Assembly: GCF_001592265.1 (NCBI RefSeq)
Contig: NZ_BCWP01000004.1
Location: 1 to 64,000 of the forward strand
Length of the DNA stretch: 64,000 bases
From: Curvibacter delicatus NBRC 14919
GTDB lineage: Bacteria > Pseudomonadota > Gammaproteobacteria > Burkholderiales > Burkholderiaceae_C
Direction: 5' to 3'
Shown: one piece after another, positions 25-8,938 of the stretch
How the letters are laid out: each line of letters opens with the position of its first letter
Numbering within the stretch: the first letter of the stretch is position 1
Translations under genes and position numbers: made by a program
Notes under the pieces: generated by a model
Databases searched by the model: none
Told to the model about the DNA's origin: nothing
Seen by the model: the letters and a program-made list of their open reading frames with translations, nothing else

Positions 25-2088
<2,064 letters not shown>

Positions 2089-2103
2089 CTCATAGAAACA
2101 CAA

Positions 2104-2114
2104 GGGGGGGGGGG
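2104..2114. repeat. Homopolymeric G11 tract before the HD-GHKL gene
   Basis: Eleven consecutive G residues end 8 nt before the ATG of the HD-GHKL gene and begin 15 nt after the glnS stop codon. The run can act as a purine-rich Shine-Dalgarno sequence. Tracts this long are prone to slippage. A TTG-initiated frame starting at 2076 would become in-frame with the HD-GHKL gene at 9 or 12 G. Contingency control is an inference; a homopolymer sequencing error in tract length is also possible. Confidence 0.85.
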
Positions 2115-2122
2115 AAGTTGAC

Positions 2123-4672
2123 ATGGACGAATTCGCGATTTGGAGGCGAACTCTCGCAGACCAAGGCGACTCACTCGATGCACAAAGATCAATTCTTCGA
2201 CAAGCATTTCTTGAATTCCGATCGAATGTCGCACAGCTCGTCCAAGAAATCGGTGGGCTTCTTCCAGATCTAACTGTTCACGACATTACCCATCTGGATG
2301 CTCTATGGCGTATCGCGGATCAAATAGCAGGGCCCGATTACCCACTGAATCCAGCCGAAGCTTTTGTTCTAGGCGGAGCAATTCTGTTGCATGACTCAGC
2401 ACATGTACTTGCCGCATATGAAAATCGCATCATAGGAGTCAAGGCGACAACGGAATGGAAGGATTTAATTGCGCAACAATTTGGTGGGAGGGAGCCATCA
2501 GATGGATCAGCCGACCAGAGAGATGCACTATTCCAAGTGCTACGTCTCCTTCACGCGAAGCAAGCACGCCTTCTACCGACCATGGAATGGAAGGTTTCTG
2601 AGAAAACTACTGGCGGCAGATTTAGATTACTTTCTCAACCCCAACTCTGCGAATACTACGGTCCATTAATCGGAGAGCTAGCCGAAAGCCATCACTGGTC
2701 AACAAAGAAAGTAGGTGAGTCTTTTGAAACTCGTCATGTCAATGCTCCAGCATTTCTAGCACCAGCCACATGGCAAGTCGATGCTCTAAAGATCGCATTT
2801 TTGCTGCGTACTGCCGATGCAGCACACATCGACGCTCAACGAGCACCTTGGTTTTTATTCGCCCTGCGACAACCTAAAGGCATATCAAGTGACCACTGGC
2901 GATTTCAAGCCAAGCTAGGGCAACCAACGCGGTCAGATAACGGCGAACTTCGGCTTACCTCTGGTAGTCCATTTGAGCCCGACGAGAGGAAAGCATGGTG
3001 GTTGGCGTATGACACCGCATGCATGATTGACCGAGAGTTACGTGATGCACAACTGATCATGCGGGACCTTGGGCGGCGGACTTTTGCAGCCACTTCAATT
3101 GCGCGAGTTGCAGACCCGTCATCCTTCGCCAAAGATGTACAAGTGCAAAACTGGGAACCGGTCAATGTTGCCCCGAAGATCAAGGACGTTCCAAAGGTGA
3201 TCGCGAATCTGGGCGGCAAGAAGCTGTACGGCGACGACCCATCTCTCGCCCTACGTGAACTACTGCAAAACTCTGCTGATGCAGTCCGTGCGCTTAGGGC
3301 AATTGGCGGTCTTGGCCCAGAAGAAGGCCAAATCGAAGTTGCACTCGAGCGCAAAAATGGGCAAAACTGGTTGCATGTTACCGATACCGGAATTGGCATG
3401 AGCCGCTATGTACTTACAGAAGTACTTCTGGATTTTGGAACATCATTTTGGAGTAGCGAACAGTCGCGCGCTGAAATACCTGGCCTCGCCGCCAGCGGAT
3501 TTAAGTCCGTAGGCCAATTCGGCATTGGCTTCTTCGCCACATTCATGCTGGGTGACAAAGTTATTGTTAATACACGGCGCTATCGCAGGGCCACAGCGGA
3601 CAGAAGCGACCAATGGCTTCTTGAATTTGGAGACTCACTTGATAGCCGGCCAATGCTGCGGCAACCATCTACGTCAGAAGAGTTGAGGAGAACTGGTACA
3701 CGAATTTCCGTCCACATTGAAGATGAAGTCTTGAAGAGACTTCTGGGAATCCGAGAAAAAACATGGACTGTCCCCGGCATCACCCATGTATACGGAGATA
3801 TTGATGAGGCTGCAACCAAAAAAGACGATCCCCCGACAGCAAGTCTTAATGCAGTTATAGGATTACTGTGCCCGACATTGGATATATCTGTGAACGTGAA
3901 AATCGGTACTAATGAGCCGAGGACGATCATTCAGCCTAATGACTGGCTAAGTCTAGATTCAGCCTCGCTTCTGAAGCGCTTATATCCGACCCACTATCGA
4001 CACAGACAACCAACAAACGAGCTAATTGACTTAGTGGAGAAAAGCGGCGAAGTCAAAGGGCGCTTACGACACCGTGATGGATACTTCAGCGAGGGCATTG
4101 CGACTCACCGAGGGATTCAATGTGGAACCGTGCCACTCACGGAGGGTGTTATTCAAGCCGAAAACAATGTCGATCTTGCTCGTAAAGTTGCACACCCCCT
4201 CGCTTCACTGGAAGCGTGGAAAACATGGGCCGTTAACCATCTTAATGAAATCGACAATGAGGATACCGACGCATTAACTGCTCTTCACCATTTGTGTCCA
4301 GATCTAGATCTCCCGGTTTTTAATCGGAATGGAGCATCGCTTAACAAGCAGGAGCTAGAGAAATGGATTTCAACTCAGTCCGTTGTTTACGTTTATGACT
4401 TTGAACTCGAACATGAAAGCTTCGATGAGGTTTCACGTCATAGCTTCGATACGTTCTTTGAACCCGCATCCGAGGTGGTTTTCATGCCGCGAGACATTGA
4501 CCGCCTAGCAAAGTATCTGGGAATTCCAACCATCGATTACCTTCCGCAAATCGAGTCCATCATGAGTGCAGCTTGGCCTTCTGGCTACGATTGGGAGCGT
4601 AAAGAACATGCGGTTGGAGAAGTCATGCTACAGAACATTGATCGCGACGTACTCGTCTTCACAAAGAAATGA
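2123..4672 (+). CDS. HD-domain / GHKL (HSP90-like) ATPase fusion, putative conflict-system protein
   Basis: The 849-residue protein combines two enzyme modules. The N-terminus carries an HD-type metal phosphohydrolase signature: H53-D54, H57, then H90-D91 with H94, and a later Asp in RTADAAHID. From about residue 365 a GHKL/HSP90-type ATPase begins: the N box has E379 and N383, the second box D421-x-G423-x-G425, and the glycine loop is G464-Q-F-G-I-G469. The C-terminal third is not recognised. Base composition is far more AT-rich than either neighbour, codon use is unlike the flanks, and the gene stands alone between glnS and a DUF427 gene, so horizontal acquisition is likely. HD-GHKL fusions resemble proteins linked to prokaryotic conflict systems. 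Substrate and trigger are unknown, and I do not assign a named defence system. Confidence 0.85.
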   Translation: MDEFAIWRRTLADQGDSLDAQRSILRQAFLEFRSNVAQLVQEIGGLLPDLTVHDITHLDALWRIADQIAGPDYPLNPAEAFVLGGAILLHDSAHVLAAYENRIIGVKATTEWKDLIAQQFGGREPSDGSADQRDALFQVLRLLHAKQARLLPTMEWKVSEKTTGGRFRLLSQPQLCEYYGPLIGELAESHHWSTKKVGESFETRHVNAPAFLAPATWQVDALKIAFLLRTADAAHIDAQRAPWFLFALRQPKGISSDHWRFQAKLGQPTRSDNGELRLTSGSPFEPDERKAWWLAYDTACMIDRELRDAQLIMRDLGRRTFAATSIARVADPSSFAKDVQVQNWEPVNVAPKIKDVPKVIANLGGKKLYGDDPSLALRELLQNSADAVRALRAIGGLGPEEGQIEVALERKNGQNWLHVTDTGIGMSRYVLTEVLLDFGTSFWSSEQSRAEIPGLAASGFKSVGQFGIGFFATFMLGDKVIVNTRRYRRATADRSDQWLLEFGDSLDSRPMLRQPSTSEELRRTGTRISVHIEDEVLKRLLGIREKTWTVPGITHVYGDIDEAATKKDDPPTASLNAVIGLLCPTLDISVNVKIGTNEPRTIIQPNDWLSLDSASLLKRLYPTHYRHRQPTNELIDLVEKSGEVKGRLRHRDGYFSEGIATHRGIQCGTVPLTEGVIQAENNVDLARKVAHPLASLEAWKTWAVNHLNEIDNEDTDALTALHHLCPDLDLPVFNRNGASLNKQELEKWISTQSVVYVYDFELEHESFDEVSRHSFDTFFEPASEVVFMPRDIDRLAKYLGIPTIDYLPQIESIMSAAWPSGYDWERKEHAVGEVMLQNIDRDVLVFTKK

Positions 4673-4679
4673 CTCAATC

Positions 4680-4694
4680 CGAGGAAAATCCTCG
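4680..4694. terminator. Small hairpin between the HD-GHKL gene and the DUF427 gene
   Basis: A perfect six-base inverted repeat, CGAGGA-aaa-TCCTCG, starts 8 nt after the HD-GHKL stop codon and ends 9 nt before the next ATG. No T-run follows. It may be a weak terminator, an RNA-processing hairpin, or a sequestered ribosome-binding site, since it contains GAGGA. Confidence 0.4.
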
Positions 4695-4702
4695 CAACCC
4701 TC

Positions 4703-4984
4703 ATGAAAGCCACCTGGAACAACACCGTCATCGCCGAGAGTGACGACACCGTGCTGGTGGAAGGTAACCACTACTTCCCCGAGCACACGCTCAAGCGCGA
4801 GTACGTCACCTTCAGCAACCACAAGACCACCTGCCCCTGGAAGGGCGAGGCGCACTACTACTCGCTCATGGTCAACGGCGACATGCTGCCCGACGCCGTG
4901 TGGTTCTACCCCGAGCCCACCCCCGAAGCCCATCTCATCCAGGGCCGCGTGGCGTTCTGGAAGGGTGTGAAGATCGAGGAGTGA
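4703..4984 (+). CDS. DUF427 domain protein
   Basis: This is a 93-residue single-domain protein of the DUF427 family. Its features are the MKATWNNTVIAESD start, a central KTTCPWKGEA segment around residue 52, and the conserved YYPEP-like VWFYPEPTP near residue 74. Family members are small soluble beta-rich proteins without an established reaction, sometimes labelled nucleotidyltransferase-like. GC-rich codon use returns here, matching the chromosome, so the AT-rich island ends before this gene. The next gene starts 34 nt downstream on the same strand and may be co-transcribed. Confidence 0.85.
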   Translation: MKATWNNTVIAESDDTVLVEGNHYFPEHTLKREYVTFSNHKTTCPWKGEAHYYSLMVNGDMLPDAVWFYPEPTPEAHLIQGRVAFWKGVKIEE

Positions 4985-5018
4985 GCAGCGCGCCCTGCGC
5001 TGGCGTTGCACACACAGC

Positions 5019-5345
5019 ATGGCCCGCCGCCCGCACTACCACGTCTACGTCATCGAGCTTTCCAAAGACGTGCTGTACGAGCCCAAGTTCCGCAAGAACA
5101 ACCCGGGCTATGTGGAAGGCAAGCCCTGTGTCTACGTCGGCATGACGGGGCTGGACCCAGATGTGCGCTTTGACAAGCACAAGGCCGGCATCCAGGCCAA
5201 CCGCTACGTCACCAAGTACGGCCTGCGCCTGCTGCCCGACCTGTATGAGGGCTTCAACCCCATGAGCTACAAAGATGCCCAGGAACGCGAGGTGGAAGTG
5301 GGCATTGACCTGCGCTCGGCCGGGTTTGGTGTCTGGCAGGCCTGA
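5019..5345 (+). CDS. Small GIY-YIG-like protein
   Basis: The protein has 108 residues. Two short strands, HVYVIEL (about 8-14) and PCVYVGMTGL (about 43-52), followed by RFDKHKAG, resemble the GIY-YIG nuclease fold in which a Tyr pair precedes a helix with a basic residue. The spacing between the two strands is longer than usual, and I cannot confirm the catalytic Arg and Glu set, although a late QEREVEVGIDLR helix supplies Glu. It may be a degenerate or non-nuclease member of the superfamily. It begins shortly after the DUF427 gene. Confidence 0.6.
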   Translation: MARRPHYHVYVIELSKDVLYEPKFRKNNPGYVEGKPCVYVGMTGLDPDVRFDKHKAGIQANRYVTKYGLRLLPDLYEGFNPMSYKDAQEREVEVGIDLRSAGFGVWQA

Positions 5346-5421: not shown

Positions 5422-6591
5422 GTGCATCTCGACACCTCCACCCTGATTTTCATCAATATCGCCGACCTGTTGGCGATGTCACTGGCCTTACCCTTGGTGA
5501 TGGGGCTCAATCTGAGCCGCGCTGCCAGCCATGTCCGCACCTCGCTCATGCTCAAGGCCGGGGCCTGGGTGCTGCTGGCGCTCACCACACGCCTGGCCGG
5601 GCAGTGGCTCGAACCGGTACTGGCCACGCTGGCCTTGGCGCTGATGTCGCTGAGCCATGTGCTGATCTTCCGTGCGCTGAGCCTGTGGCTGGGGCCGCGG
5701 CCCATGGGCCGGCTGCTGGTGGTGCTGGCCGTGGCCACGCCGATCGGCTTTGCGCTGAGTTTTCACAACTACCCGGTGCGGGTGGCCTGGATCAGCCTGG
5801 CGCTGGCCGGGCAGTTGCTGATTCAGGCGCGGGCGACGCTGCTGCCCGCCGCCGACAGCAACAGCCGCGGTGGCTGGCGCTACCTGCTGTTCGGCTGCCT
5901 GTTCCTGATGGCGGTGCTGATGGCCTTTCGCGGCATCTTTGGCGCCTTTGTCCCGGAGCTCAGCCCCGGCTTCACCACGCCTTCGCCCATCATCGCGCTG
6001 ACGCTGGTCGCGGCCAATGTTGCGCTGGTGTTGGGCAATATCGCCCTGCTGGCCGCCTGGCGCGAAGAAGCCCAGCAGCAGTTGCGCACGCTGGTGGTGA
6101 CGGACACGCTCACGGGCCTGCTCAACCGCAACGGCTGGTCTGAACAGGCGAACCAGGCGCTGCGTTATGCACAGCGCCACGGGTTTCCGCTCTCGCTGCT
6201 GATGTTCGACCTGGACCATTTCAAACGCATCAACGACACGCACGGCCATGAGGTGGGCGACACGGCGCTGGCGTTTTTCGGCGGCCTGCTCAGGCAGTGC
6301 CTGCGCGCGGGTGACGTGAACGCCCGCCTGGGTGGCGAAGAGTTCTGTGTGCTGCTGGTGCACGCCGACACCACGGCGGCGCAGGCCTTTGACCAGCGCC
6401 TGCGTGCCGCACTGGCCGAGGCTGCGCCGCAGGCGATTCCCTGCACCATCGACTTCAGCACCGGCCATGCCCTGTGCAACGGCAAGGACGAGACGCTGGA
6501 GTCGCTCATGGCCCGTGCCGACACGGCGCTGTACCGCGCCAAGAACGCGGGCCGCAGCCAGCTGGTTTCGGCCGAGGCACCAGCCAGTTGA
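5422..6591 (+). CDS. Membrane diguanylate cyclase (copy 1)
   Basis: This enzyme makes the second messenger cyclic di-GMP from two GTP. About 200 N-terminal residues form six or seven hydrophobic helices, followed by a GGDEF domain. The active-site loop is G304-G-E-E-F308, and an RxxD allosteric inhibition site (R295-A-G-D298) lies five residues upstream, so the enzyme should be active and product-inhibited. The start is a GTG that gives the N-terminus MHLDTSTLIFINIADLL. It aligns end to end with the gene at 7766 (389 and 390 residues, both GTG starts, the motif at residue 304 in both), so the two are a local duplication. The signal sensed by the membrane part is unknown. Confidence 0.93.
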   Translation: MHLDTSTLIFINIADLLAMSLALPLVMGLNLSRAASHVRTSLMLKAGAWVLLALTTRLAGQWLEPVLATLALALMSLSHVLIFRALSLWLGPRPMGRLLVVLAVATPIGFALSFHNYPVRVAWISLALAGQLLIQARATLLPAADSNSRGGWRYLLFGCLFLMAVLMAFRGIFGAFVPELSPGFTTPSPIIALTLVAANVALVLGNIALLAAWREEAQQQLRTLVVTDTLTGLLNRNGWSEQANQALRYAQRHGFPLSLLMFDLDHFKRINDTHGHEVGDTALAFFGGLLRQCLRAGDVNARLGGEEFCVLLVHADTTAAQAFDQRLRAALAEAAPQAIPCTIDFSTGHALCNGKDETLESLMARADTALYRAKNAGRSQLVSAEAPAS

Positions 6592-7765: not shown

Positions 7766-8938
7766 GTGCAGATCGATCCCACTTCGCTCATCATCGTCAA
7801 CGTTGCCAACCTGCTGGTCATGGCAACGGCGCTGCCTTTCGTCATGGGCCAGGGCCTGAGCCCGGCTGCCAGCCATGCGCGGCACTCGTTGCTCCTCAAT
7901 GCCGCCGCCTGGATCTGCCTGCTGGCCTCCAGCCTCTGGTACGGGCAGACGCCAGACCTCATCCTGTCCACCTTGGCCATGGCCTTCATCTGCGCCAGCC
8001 AGTGGATGGTGTACCGCGCGCTGGAGAACTGGCTGGGCCCGCGCCCGCTGCGCGGCCTGCTGCGCTTGCTGGTGTGGATCATGCCGGTGGGTTATGTGCT
8101 GAGTTTCTCCAGCTACCCGGTGCGCGTGGGCTGGGCCAACCTGGTGCTGGCGGCACAGCTGCTCATCGTGGCGCGCGCCTGCCTCTACCCCACCAGCCGC
8201 AACTTCGGCCGGCGCGCCTGGCGCTACCCGCTGTTCGGCTGTCTGGCCGTGATGGCCGGGTTCACCGCGGCGCGCGGCATCCTGGGCGCGTGGTTCACCG
8301 AGCTGTACCCGTTTTTCCGTGCCCCCACGCCGGTGAACATTGCGGCGCTGATCGGCGCCAACATGTCGCTGGTGCTGGGCACGATTGCCATGCTGGGCGC
8401 CTGGCGCGAAGAAGCGGAACGCCAGCTGCACAAGCTGGCCAGCACCGACACCCTGACCGGCCTGCTCAACCGCCACGGCTGGACGATGCAGACACGCCAC
8501 CCGCTGCGCCAGGCGCAGCGCCACGGGCACCCGCTGTCGCTGCTGATGCTGGACGTGGACCACTTCAAGCGCATCAACGACACGCACGGCCACGAAGTCG
8601 GCGACGCGGCGCTGCAGCTCATCGGCCAGTTGCTGCAGCGCTGCCAGCGCGGGGGCGACGTGAGCGCGCGCGTGGGCGGCGAGGAGTTCTGCGTGCTGCT
8701 GCCCTACACCGACGCCGCCGCGGCGCAGGCCTTTGATGCCCGCCTGCGCACCGAGCTGGCCACCCATGCGAGCGCGGCCGGCCTGCCCTGCACGCTGGAC
8801 TTCAGCAGCGGCCACGCACAGTACCGCCCATCGGGCGAGACACTGGAGTCGCTGATGGCGCGCGCCGACGCTGCGCTGTACCGCGCCAAGAACAGCGGCC
8901 GAAGCCGGCTGGTGCTGTACGAAAACACCATCACCTGA
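7766..8938 (+). CDS. Membrane diguanylate cyclase (copy 2)
   Basis: This paralogue of the enzyme at 5422 has the same architecture: multiple N-terminal membrane helices (starting MQIDPTSLIIVNVANLL) and a C-terminal GGDEF domain. The catalytic loop is G304-G-E-E-F308 with the RxxD inhibition site R-G-G-D five residues before it, and the helical signature LDVDHFKRINDTHGHEVGD is conserved. It starts at GTG, like its partner. The strongest conservation between copies lies in the cyclase domain and in short membrane-domain blocks such as SxYPVRVxW. The divergent loops in the membrane half suggest that the copies sense different inputs while making the same product. Confidence 0.93.
   Translation: MQIDPTSLIIVNVANLLVMATALPFVMGQGLSPAASHARHSLLLNAAAWICLLASSLWYGQTPDLILSTLAMAFICASQWMVYRALENWLGPRPLRGLLRLLVWIMPVGYVLSFSSYPVRVGWANLVLAAQLLIVARACLYPTSRNFGRRAWRYPLFGCLAVMAGFTAARGILGAWFTELYPFFRAPTPVNIAALIGANMSLVLGTIAMLGAWREEAERQLHKLASTDTLTGLLNRHGWTMQTRHPLRQAQRHGHPLSLLMLDVDHFKRINDTHGHEVGDAALQLIGQLLQRCQRGGDVSARVGGEEFCVLLPYTDAAAAQAFDARLRTELATHASAAGLPCTLDFSSGHAQYRPSGETLESLMARADAALYRAKNSGRSRLVLYENTIT

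What the first reader, a model, noticed from the sequence alone, without database searches (positions are those of the whole stretch)
2123..4672. Standalone AT-rich HD/GHKL ATPase fusion: candidate single-gene conflict system
HD phosphohydrolase motifs and a complete GHKL ATP-binding site occur in one chain, in a gene whose composition is foreign to its GC-rich neighbours, and with no partner gene. The two-enzyme design suggests ATP-gated activation of a nuclease or nucleotide hydrolase. I cannot match it to a named defence system.
Basis: partly seen in the sequence, partly recalled or inferred. Interest (0 to 1): 0.75.

Follow-up and report, generated by a model that had tools for sequence, protein, structure and literature searches.

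The report
Lone HD-Hsp90 fusion in defence slot
A bacterial genome carries one acquired gene that joins a phosphate-cutting enzyme to an Hsp90-type switch; it sits where related bacteria keep other genes, many of them antiviral, so it is probably a one-gene virus defence of a class already predicted, with its function still untested here.

Summary
Observation confirmed: window 2123-4672 (+) is one intact 849-aa ORF with a complete HD motif (H53/H57, H90-D91, H144, H190, D232) and a complete Hsp90-type GHKL site. GC3 is 0.45 against a window mean of 0.80. No partner gene is evident. Pfam calls the N-terminus HD-CE (PF24391, E 1.3e-49), a name I recall from Nicastro et al. 2023, whose abstract (recalled; paper not held) already links such effectors with HSP90 modules. 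So the class can be matched.

New here is context. In 11 of 11 genus-mates where glnS and DUF427 were found together, other AT-rich genes fill the gap, among them a retron II-A pair, OLD-like ATPases, FRG+GmrSD and an AbiU-like protein. Homologues (mostly 30-42% identical) are patchy and AT-rich; ten lie on predicted viral contigs, several beside cI-like repressor, integrase or portal genes, one on a plasmid next to a TIR-NLR, others beside YhcG or PDC-S06. Model and fold search show Hsp90; a middle domain is likely, not proved. The last third is the most variable part.

Best reading: an infection-triggered Hsp90-like ATP clamp that switches an HD phosphohydrolase. Defence role, gating and substrate are inferred. 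New member of a known kind.

The parts
2123..4672 (+). HD-CE/Hsp90 fusion gene, 849 aa
2261..3043 (+). HD-CE domain (aa 47-307), predicted HD phosphohydrolase; H53/H57, H90-D91, H144, H190, D232
   Evidence: Pfam PF24391 E 1.3e-49; conservation; model of aa 1-347 pLDDT 90.1
3215..3757 (+). Hsp90-type GHKL ATPase domain (about aa 365-545)
   Evidence: Foldseek GRP94/TRAP1
3257..3280 (+). N-box E379..N383..D386
   Evidence: 14 of 14
3383..3400 (+). G1 box D421-T-G-I-G-M426
   Evidence: D421, G423, G425, M426 14 of 14
3512..3532 (+). G2 box GQFGIGF (464-470)
   Evidence: G467, G469 14 of 14; G464 13 of 14
3758..4669 (+). C-terminal region (aa 546-849), probably Hsp90 middle-domain-like, most variable part, candidate sensor/clamp
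   Evidence: two of the 60 listed PDB hits (HSC82, Hsp82) align over profile positions 365-806 of 872; Foldseek alignments of 389-581 columns to Hsp90s, model range not reported; mean identity 0.16-0.17; C-terminal profile alone has no significant PDB hit
4181..4183 (+). R687; candidate middle-domain catalytic Arg (inference)
   Evidence: invariant (10 sequences; 11; 13), sets that overlap; not matched in distant L131 and L138 in the alignment
2104..2114 (+). G11 homopolymer 8 nt before the ATG; possible slippage switch
   Evidence: one of 4 G/C runs of 10 or more in the genome; absent from 21 homologue leaders
2089..4702 (.). glnS-DUF427 cargo slot
25..2088 (+). glnS, left border of the slot
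4703..4984 (+). DUF427 (NTP_transf_9) gene, right border of the slot

Best explanation
A horizontally acquired single-gene anti-phage (or anti-mobile-element) protein. An Hsp90-like ATP clamp (ATPase domain plus variable, probably middle-like region, about aa 365-849) holds the N-terminal HD phosphohydrolase (aa 1-345) inactive and, on meeting an infection cue, changes state with ATP so that the HD enzyme is released and destroys nucleotides or a nucleotide-like substrate, halting phage and probably the cell. Shown: two intact active-site motif sets, their joint conservation, Hsp90 likeness of the second half, foreign composition, patchy distribution and slot context. Inferred: defence, gating, substrate, dimerisation.
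For: Motifs kept in 13 of 13 homologues except H144 and G464 in one of them, L138, and in all 10 (9 new). HATPase also detected in 4 of 5 long HD-CE proteins without a BLASTP match (1 of the 4 over Pfam's cut-off; the fifth has WD40). Models: pLDDT 80.1, pTM 0.69; HD part 90.1, 0.90. Hsp90 fold matches, best E 3.4e-11. Slot: 11 of 11 genus-mates with both borders have other AT-rich cargo; PADLOC hits at E <= 1e-15 in 9 of 15 slot proteins scanned, from 7 of 12 genomes, against 0 of 5 proteins of the next gap. Ten predicted viral contigs carry the fusion, with repressor, integrase, portal, terminase or head genes near by in several. HD-CE also occurs alone or with WD40, as a swappable effector would. 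Precedent: VcSduA, GHKL + nuclease, both sites needed (passages of PMC12137116).
Against: No functional data. The HD model has no Foldseek match at E <= 0.001 (best 0.038, a PDE), so substrate is open. PADLOC does not know the protein (TmtA only, E 0.012). At least five homologues (L126, L127, L134, L135, L138) sit among core-looking genes (by eye). Some slot cargo is not defence-like: transglycosylase in G015, cytochrome c in G006; five of the 15 scanned proteins gave nothing at E <= 1e-5, and the AAA-type hits are to broad ATPase models. Eight of 23 slot proteins were not scanned by PADLOC. No full-length relative was found in named phage records.
Confidence: 0.65

Rival explanations
1. Defence protein in which the HD domain is a nuclease or cleaves a signalling nucleotide (cyclic mono- or oligonucleotide) rather than free nucleotides.
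For: The motif set H..HD..H..H..D resembles the two-metal type of HD nucleases and PDEs (recalled); most of the best, though weak, fold matches are cyclic-nucleotide PDEs.
Against: Those matches have E 0.04-0.9 and TM-scores of about 0.2-0.3; no nucleotide-cyclase gene is evident beside it.
Confidence: 0.25
2. A chaperone-like regulator or stress protein: the Hsp90 part acts on clients and the HD part makes or breaks an alarmone; not antiviral.
For: Strong Hsp90 N-domain likeness.
Against: Patchy: 4 of 399 family genomes; foreign composition; defence-rich slot; carriage on predicted viral contigs and a plasmid; no Hsp90 C-terminal dimer domain found.
Confidence: 0.1
3. A selfish or addictive cargo gene (toxin of a mobile element) without benefit against phage.
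For: Mobile contexts; slots of relatives include Gp49/HTH toxin-antitoxin-like genes and, by eye, zeta-toxin-like ones.
Against: No antitoxin-like partner seen; residues of the putative switch kept over wide divergence.
Confidence: 0.12

Closest known systems
HD-CE effectors coupled to HSP90 modules (Nicastro et al. 2023, NAR 51:11479; abstract recalled, paper not held; Pfam PF24391)
   Same: HD-CE domain and Hsp90-like ATPase, here in one chain
   Different: Nothing tested sets it apart; slot and viral-contig contexts are added here
VcSduA (Shedu with GHKL N-domain; PMC12137116, passages seen)
   Same: single gene, GHKL ATPase plus a cutting effector
   Different: effector is PD-(D/E)xK DUF4263 at the C-terminus; here HD at the N-terminus
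Tiamat (TmtA)
   Same: GHKL ATPase in a large single protein (recalled)
   Different: only 23 residues match, E 0.012
Clover CloA dNTPase (PMC12265719, passages seen)
   Same: HD phosphohydrolase effector in defence
   Different: works with an NTase, CloB; here an Hsp90-like domain is fused and no partner gene is evident
HtpG/Hsp90
   Same: N-terminal ATPase and probably middle domain
   Different: N-terminal HD added; alignment stops at 457-461 of HSC82/Hsp82, so no C-terminal dimer domain seen

Membership tests
HD-CE/HSP90 predicted immune proteins | HD-CE domain | tested here: met
   PF24391 169.7 bits, cut-off 27
HD-CE/HSP90 predicted immune proteins | Hsp90-type GHKL ATPase in the same chain | tested here: met
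   PF13589 36.6 bits, cut-off 25
HD-CE/HSP90 predicted immune proteins | conflict or mobile genomic context | tested here: met
   slot; predicted viral contigs; island and plasmid neighbours in the 6 of 13 homologues scanned; five others core-looking
HD-CE/HSP90 predicted immune proteins | phage protection | not testable with these tools
   needs plaque assays
HD superfamily phosphohydrolase | H..HD..D metal ligands | tested here: met
HD superfamily phosphohydrolase | HD fold | tested here: inconclusive
   confident mostly helical model; best matches PDEs but E >= 0.038
Hsp90 chaperones (HtpG) | N domain with N, G1, G2 boxes | tested here: met
Hsp90 chaperones (HtpG) | middle domain with catalytic Arg | tested here: inconclusive
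   for: HSC82 and Hsp82 align over profile positions 365-806, R687 invariant; against: other listed hits stop near position 585 or before, hhalign to own HtpG covers the N domain only, one search finds nothing, R687 not matched in L131, L138
Hsp90 chaperones (HtpG) | C-terminal dimerisation domain | tested here: not met
   profile alignment ends at 457-461 of HSC82/Hsp82
Tiamat | full-length TmtA profile match | tested here: not met
   E 0.012 over 23 of 1063 positions
Shedu VcSduA-type | DUF4263 nuclease | tested here: not met
   only HD-CE and two HATPase models in Pfam at E <= 10
Clover | adjacent NTase partner | tested here: not met
   neighbours glnS, DUF427, GIY-YIG-like

The most novel reading that the evidence does not exclude
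An Hsp90-type clamp serves as an NLR-like sensor: its fast-diverging last third recognises an infection-made client and ATP-driven closure fires the HD enzyme. The gene is also one cassette of a glnS-linked exchange slot in which defence genes are swapped one or two at a time, without an integrase of their own, some bringing a copy of the glnS 3' end.
Probability: 0.25. Interest if true: 0.75.

Novelty: new member of a known kind. Interest (0 to 1): 0.42.

Why it matters
If right, it gives a compact, testable example of an Hsp90-like ATPase used as an immune switch, with both catalytic sites in one chain so that each can be knocked out separately. The glnS-DUF427 slot would be a hunting ground: 9 of 15 occupants scanned match defence profiles at E <= 1e-15, and unmatched ones (cargo of G002/G025, G015, G018) would be candidates for new systems.

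Tried and rejected
Considered and rejected: (1) plain HtpG paralogue: an HD-CE domain is fused, and full-length relatives are patchy. (2) Tiamat or Shedu member: defining features not met. (3) Clover-like: no partner NTase. (4) Assembly artefact: homologues of the same architecture exist in many genomes. (5) Phase variation by the G11 tract: left open; it is rare (4 places in 3.76 Mb), but the other three lie, by eye, by ordinary genes and 21 homologue leaders lack it.

Led nowhere: tblastn in phage records found only matches confined to the Hsp90 part or none at 1e-20 for L169's protein; blastn of the genes of L162 and L133 in E. coli genomes gave none; C-terminal profile against PDB gave nothing significant; hhalign to the genome's own HtpG reached the N domain only. 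Literature: one search (HD-CE) gave unrelated papers; one search listed eight, of which three were opened and cite Nicastro et al. in their reference lists; listings of searches showed no paper on such a protein; one search (two of glnS, defence hotspot, Comamonadaceae) found none. In PMC9519451 and PMC13092281 only matching passages were seen.

Full report
What is there. The ORF at 2123-4672 (+) codes for 849 aa. Pfam finds HD-CE at 47-307 (1.3e-49) and HATPase_c_3 at 375-492 (5.7e-9). NCBIfam finds Hsp90-family models far below their cut-offs (best 65 of 455 bits), and PADLOC only a 23-residue TmtA scrap. Its GC3 is 0.45 against a mean of 0.80 (sd 0.085) for 47 ORFs picked by a simple caller in the window, the lowest of them. 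The gene occurs once in its genome; the second hit there is HtpG.

Conservation. Of 23 loci searched by BLASTP, 13 gave a match. Aligned with them, H53, H57, H90-D91, H190, D232 and E379, N383, D386, D421, G423, G425, M426, G467, G469 are identical in 14 of 14; H144 and G464 in 13 of 14, L138 being the exception. One of the 13 (L139, 446 aa) stops inside the GHKL domain. Of the ten unmatched loci, five hold long HD-CE proteins: four carry HATPase by Pfam at E 0.007 to 9.5e-6, one of them over the cut-off, and the fifth (L141) has WD40 repeats; two short ones scanned (L142, L143) show HD-CE alone; the other three were not scanned. Mean identity to the query is 0.35-0.39 in the HD part, 0.38-0.39 in the ATPase and 0.16-0.17 after residue 545.

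Structure. AlphaFold2 on 11 sequences gave pLDDT 80.1 and pTM 0.69; the HD part alone 90.1 and 0.90. Foldseek against PDB lists Hsp90s or their complexes throughout the 50 rows shown, best E 3.4e-11, over 389-581 alignment columns; the range in the model is not reported. Against viral models it lists Hsp90-like proteins and phage RIIA proteins among the named rows. A profile of the 11 sequences hits 155 PDB sequences; of the 60 shown, HSC82 and Hsp82 align over profile positions 365-806 of 872 to their residues 23-457/461, which would be the N and middle domains (domain limits recalled); the others shown stop near position 585 or before. hhalign to the genome's own HtpG covers only the N domain, and a profile of the last part alone finds nothing significant. 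So a middle domain is likely but not proved. R687 is invariant and resembles by position the arginine of the HtpG stretch NVSRE; that it is the Hsp90 catalytic arginine is inference, and distant L131 and L138 do not match it in the alignment. The HD model's matches are mostly cyclic-nucleotide phosphodiesterases and, lower, a dGTPase, none at E <= 0.001.

Where it sits. glnS (25-2088) and DUF427 (4703-4984) border it. In the genus, 25 of 26 genomes gave a glnS hit, two of them only a weak distant one; I took 15 downstream regions. DUF427 was found in 11 (in pieces in G025 and G008), and in all 11 a stretch of about 1.2-2.4 kb lies between, GC 0.47-0.54, with unrelated genes on the glnS strand. 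By eye, likeness stops at the glnS stop codon and resumes at the DUF427 ATG. I listed 23 cargo proteins from 14 genomes and ran Pfam on 20: OLD-like AAA_15 (G024, G017), FRG + GmrSD_N (G012), reverse transcriptase (G013), AIPR (G008), an ORC-CDC6-like match under the cut-off (G009), UvrD-like (G007, no DUF427 found), Gp49/HTH plus T5orf172 (G003), DUF6036 nucleotidyltransferase (G018), STAS with weak HATPase (G023), transglycosylase (G015), cytochrome c (G006, no DUF427), no match for G002 (no DUF427 found) and for the longer G025 protein. PADLOC was run on 15 of the 23: 9, from 7 of 12 genomes, hit at E <= 1e-15, among them a type II-A retron pair (NDT 4.1e-62, RT 8.5e-109; G013), PDC-S15 3.5e-50 (G012), AbiU 8.2e-35 (G008) and 'Helicase' 5.8e-137 (G007); hits of the AAA proteins are to broad ATPase models. 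The first ten were chosen by eye as the likelier ones, which biases the share upward. Of five control proteins from the next gap (DUF427 to GIY-YIG), four had no hit at 0.01 and one, a P-loop protein, had 3.9e-6 at best.

How the slot may be filled. In G018, G027 and G087 an extra copy of the last 80-110 codons of glnS lies before the AT-rich cargo (71, 45 and 65% identical to the window glnS). In G025 and G008 pieces of DUF427 are repeated. Stacked insertions at the glnS 3' end, or exchange through the flanks, would leave such marks. No integrase family was among the Pfam hits of the 20 proteins. The window's own slot has no such relic. In 20 regions from other genera of the family, picked from the matches in 120 genomes, ORFs of GC 0.53 or less follow glnS in 5 (L178, L183, L186, L187, L191), and DUF427 was found in 1 (L186).

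Homologues elsewhere. The HD part matches 4 of 399 family genomes, own included. HD-CE passes its cut-off in 14 of 399 order and 17 of 398 phylum genomes, counting every HD-CE protein and not only fusions. The gene is poorer in GC than its surroundings in 12 of 13 homologues and in 10 of 10 viral contigs. Neighbours of 6 of the 13 were scanned by PADLOC, chosen by eye: TIR-NLR next on a Zymomonas plasmid (L094), YhcG and NERD-UvrD (L128), PDC-S06 and a protein with Cap4-nuclease and nSTAND1 matches under Pfam's cut-offs (L130), PDC-M36A about 4 kb off (L131), an HNH protein (L095), a methyltransferase-like one (L002); tyrosine integrases in L131 and L133. L126, L127, L134, L135 and L138 look by eye to lie among core genes. 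The viral-contig scan gave 16 loci, of which 10 hold the fusion, L163 and L164 apparently the same gene. A cI-like repressor lies directly upstream in L163, L165 and L169; an integrase is next to it in L168 (with a repressor 3.7 kb off) and within a few ORFs in L169 and L170; portal and terminase genes are next to it in L162; a major head protein lies on L161. L169 reads repressor, fusion, a small ORF, integrase. PMC9122126 names the place between cI repressor and integrase of a P2-related phage of Vibrionaceae as a defence hotspot (passage); whether L169 is such a phage was not tested. These contigs are predicted viral sequence and may include host flanks; named phage records gave no full-length relative.

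How it likely works. A GHKL domain that is needed together with a cutting domain has a tested parallel: in VcSduA loss of either the ATPase or the nuclease residue abolished defence (passage of PMC12137116). Here the order is reversed, with HD first. Conserved HD and ATPase parts against a variable last third suggest effector and engine against sensor. HD-CE is, as I recall the abstract of Nicastro et al. 2023, predicted to degrade nucleotides; that paper is not in the library, and only citations of it were seen.

Verdict. Real, well conserved, very probably mobile, probably a one-gene defence. It belongs to a predicted class, so novelty is modest; the slot and the viral-contig placement are the additions.

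Noticed in passing
window 2089-4702; L146-L160, L186, L204: The glnS-DUF427 gap behaves as a cargo slot with many defence-like genes; glnS 3'-end duplicates in G018, G027, G087.
   Followed up: partly
window 4984-5019 and L146-L153: A second variable gap between DUF427 and the GIY-YIG-like gene, mostly with host-like GC in relatives and nearly empty in the window.
   Followed up: partly
window 2104-2114: G11 tract 8 nt before the start codon, rare in the genome; possible phase variation.
   Followed up: partly
L150 10170-12067: Type II-A retron pair (NDT + RT) in the glnS slot of G013; its RNA was not sought.
   Followed up: no
L156 225-1589 and L159 393-1766: Proteins of about 455 aa in the slot of G002 and G025 that look alike at the N-terminus by eye and have no Pfam match; candidates for unknown defence genes.
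   Followed up: no
L141 9524-12613: HD-CE fused to WD40 repeats, 1030 aa.
   Followed up: no
L139 9570-10910: Homologue ORF ends within the GHKL domain (446 aa), apparently broken.
   Followed up: no
L166 2790-4766: Second ORF whose N-terminus reads by eye like a GHKL ATPase, about 3 kb upstream of the fusion homologue on the same viral contig.
   Followed up: no
window 5422-6591 and 7766-8938: Two alike proteins that read by eye as GGDEF-type flank a flavodoxin-like gene.
   Followed up: no
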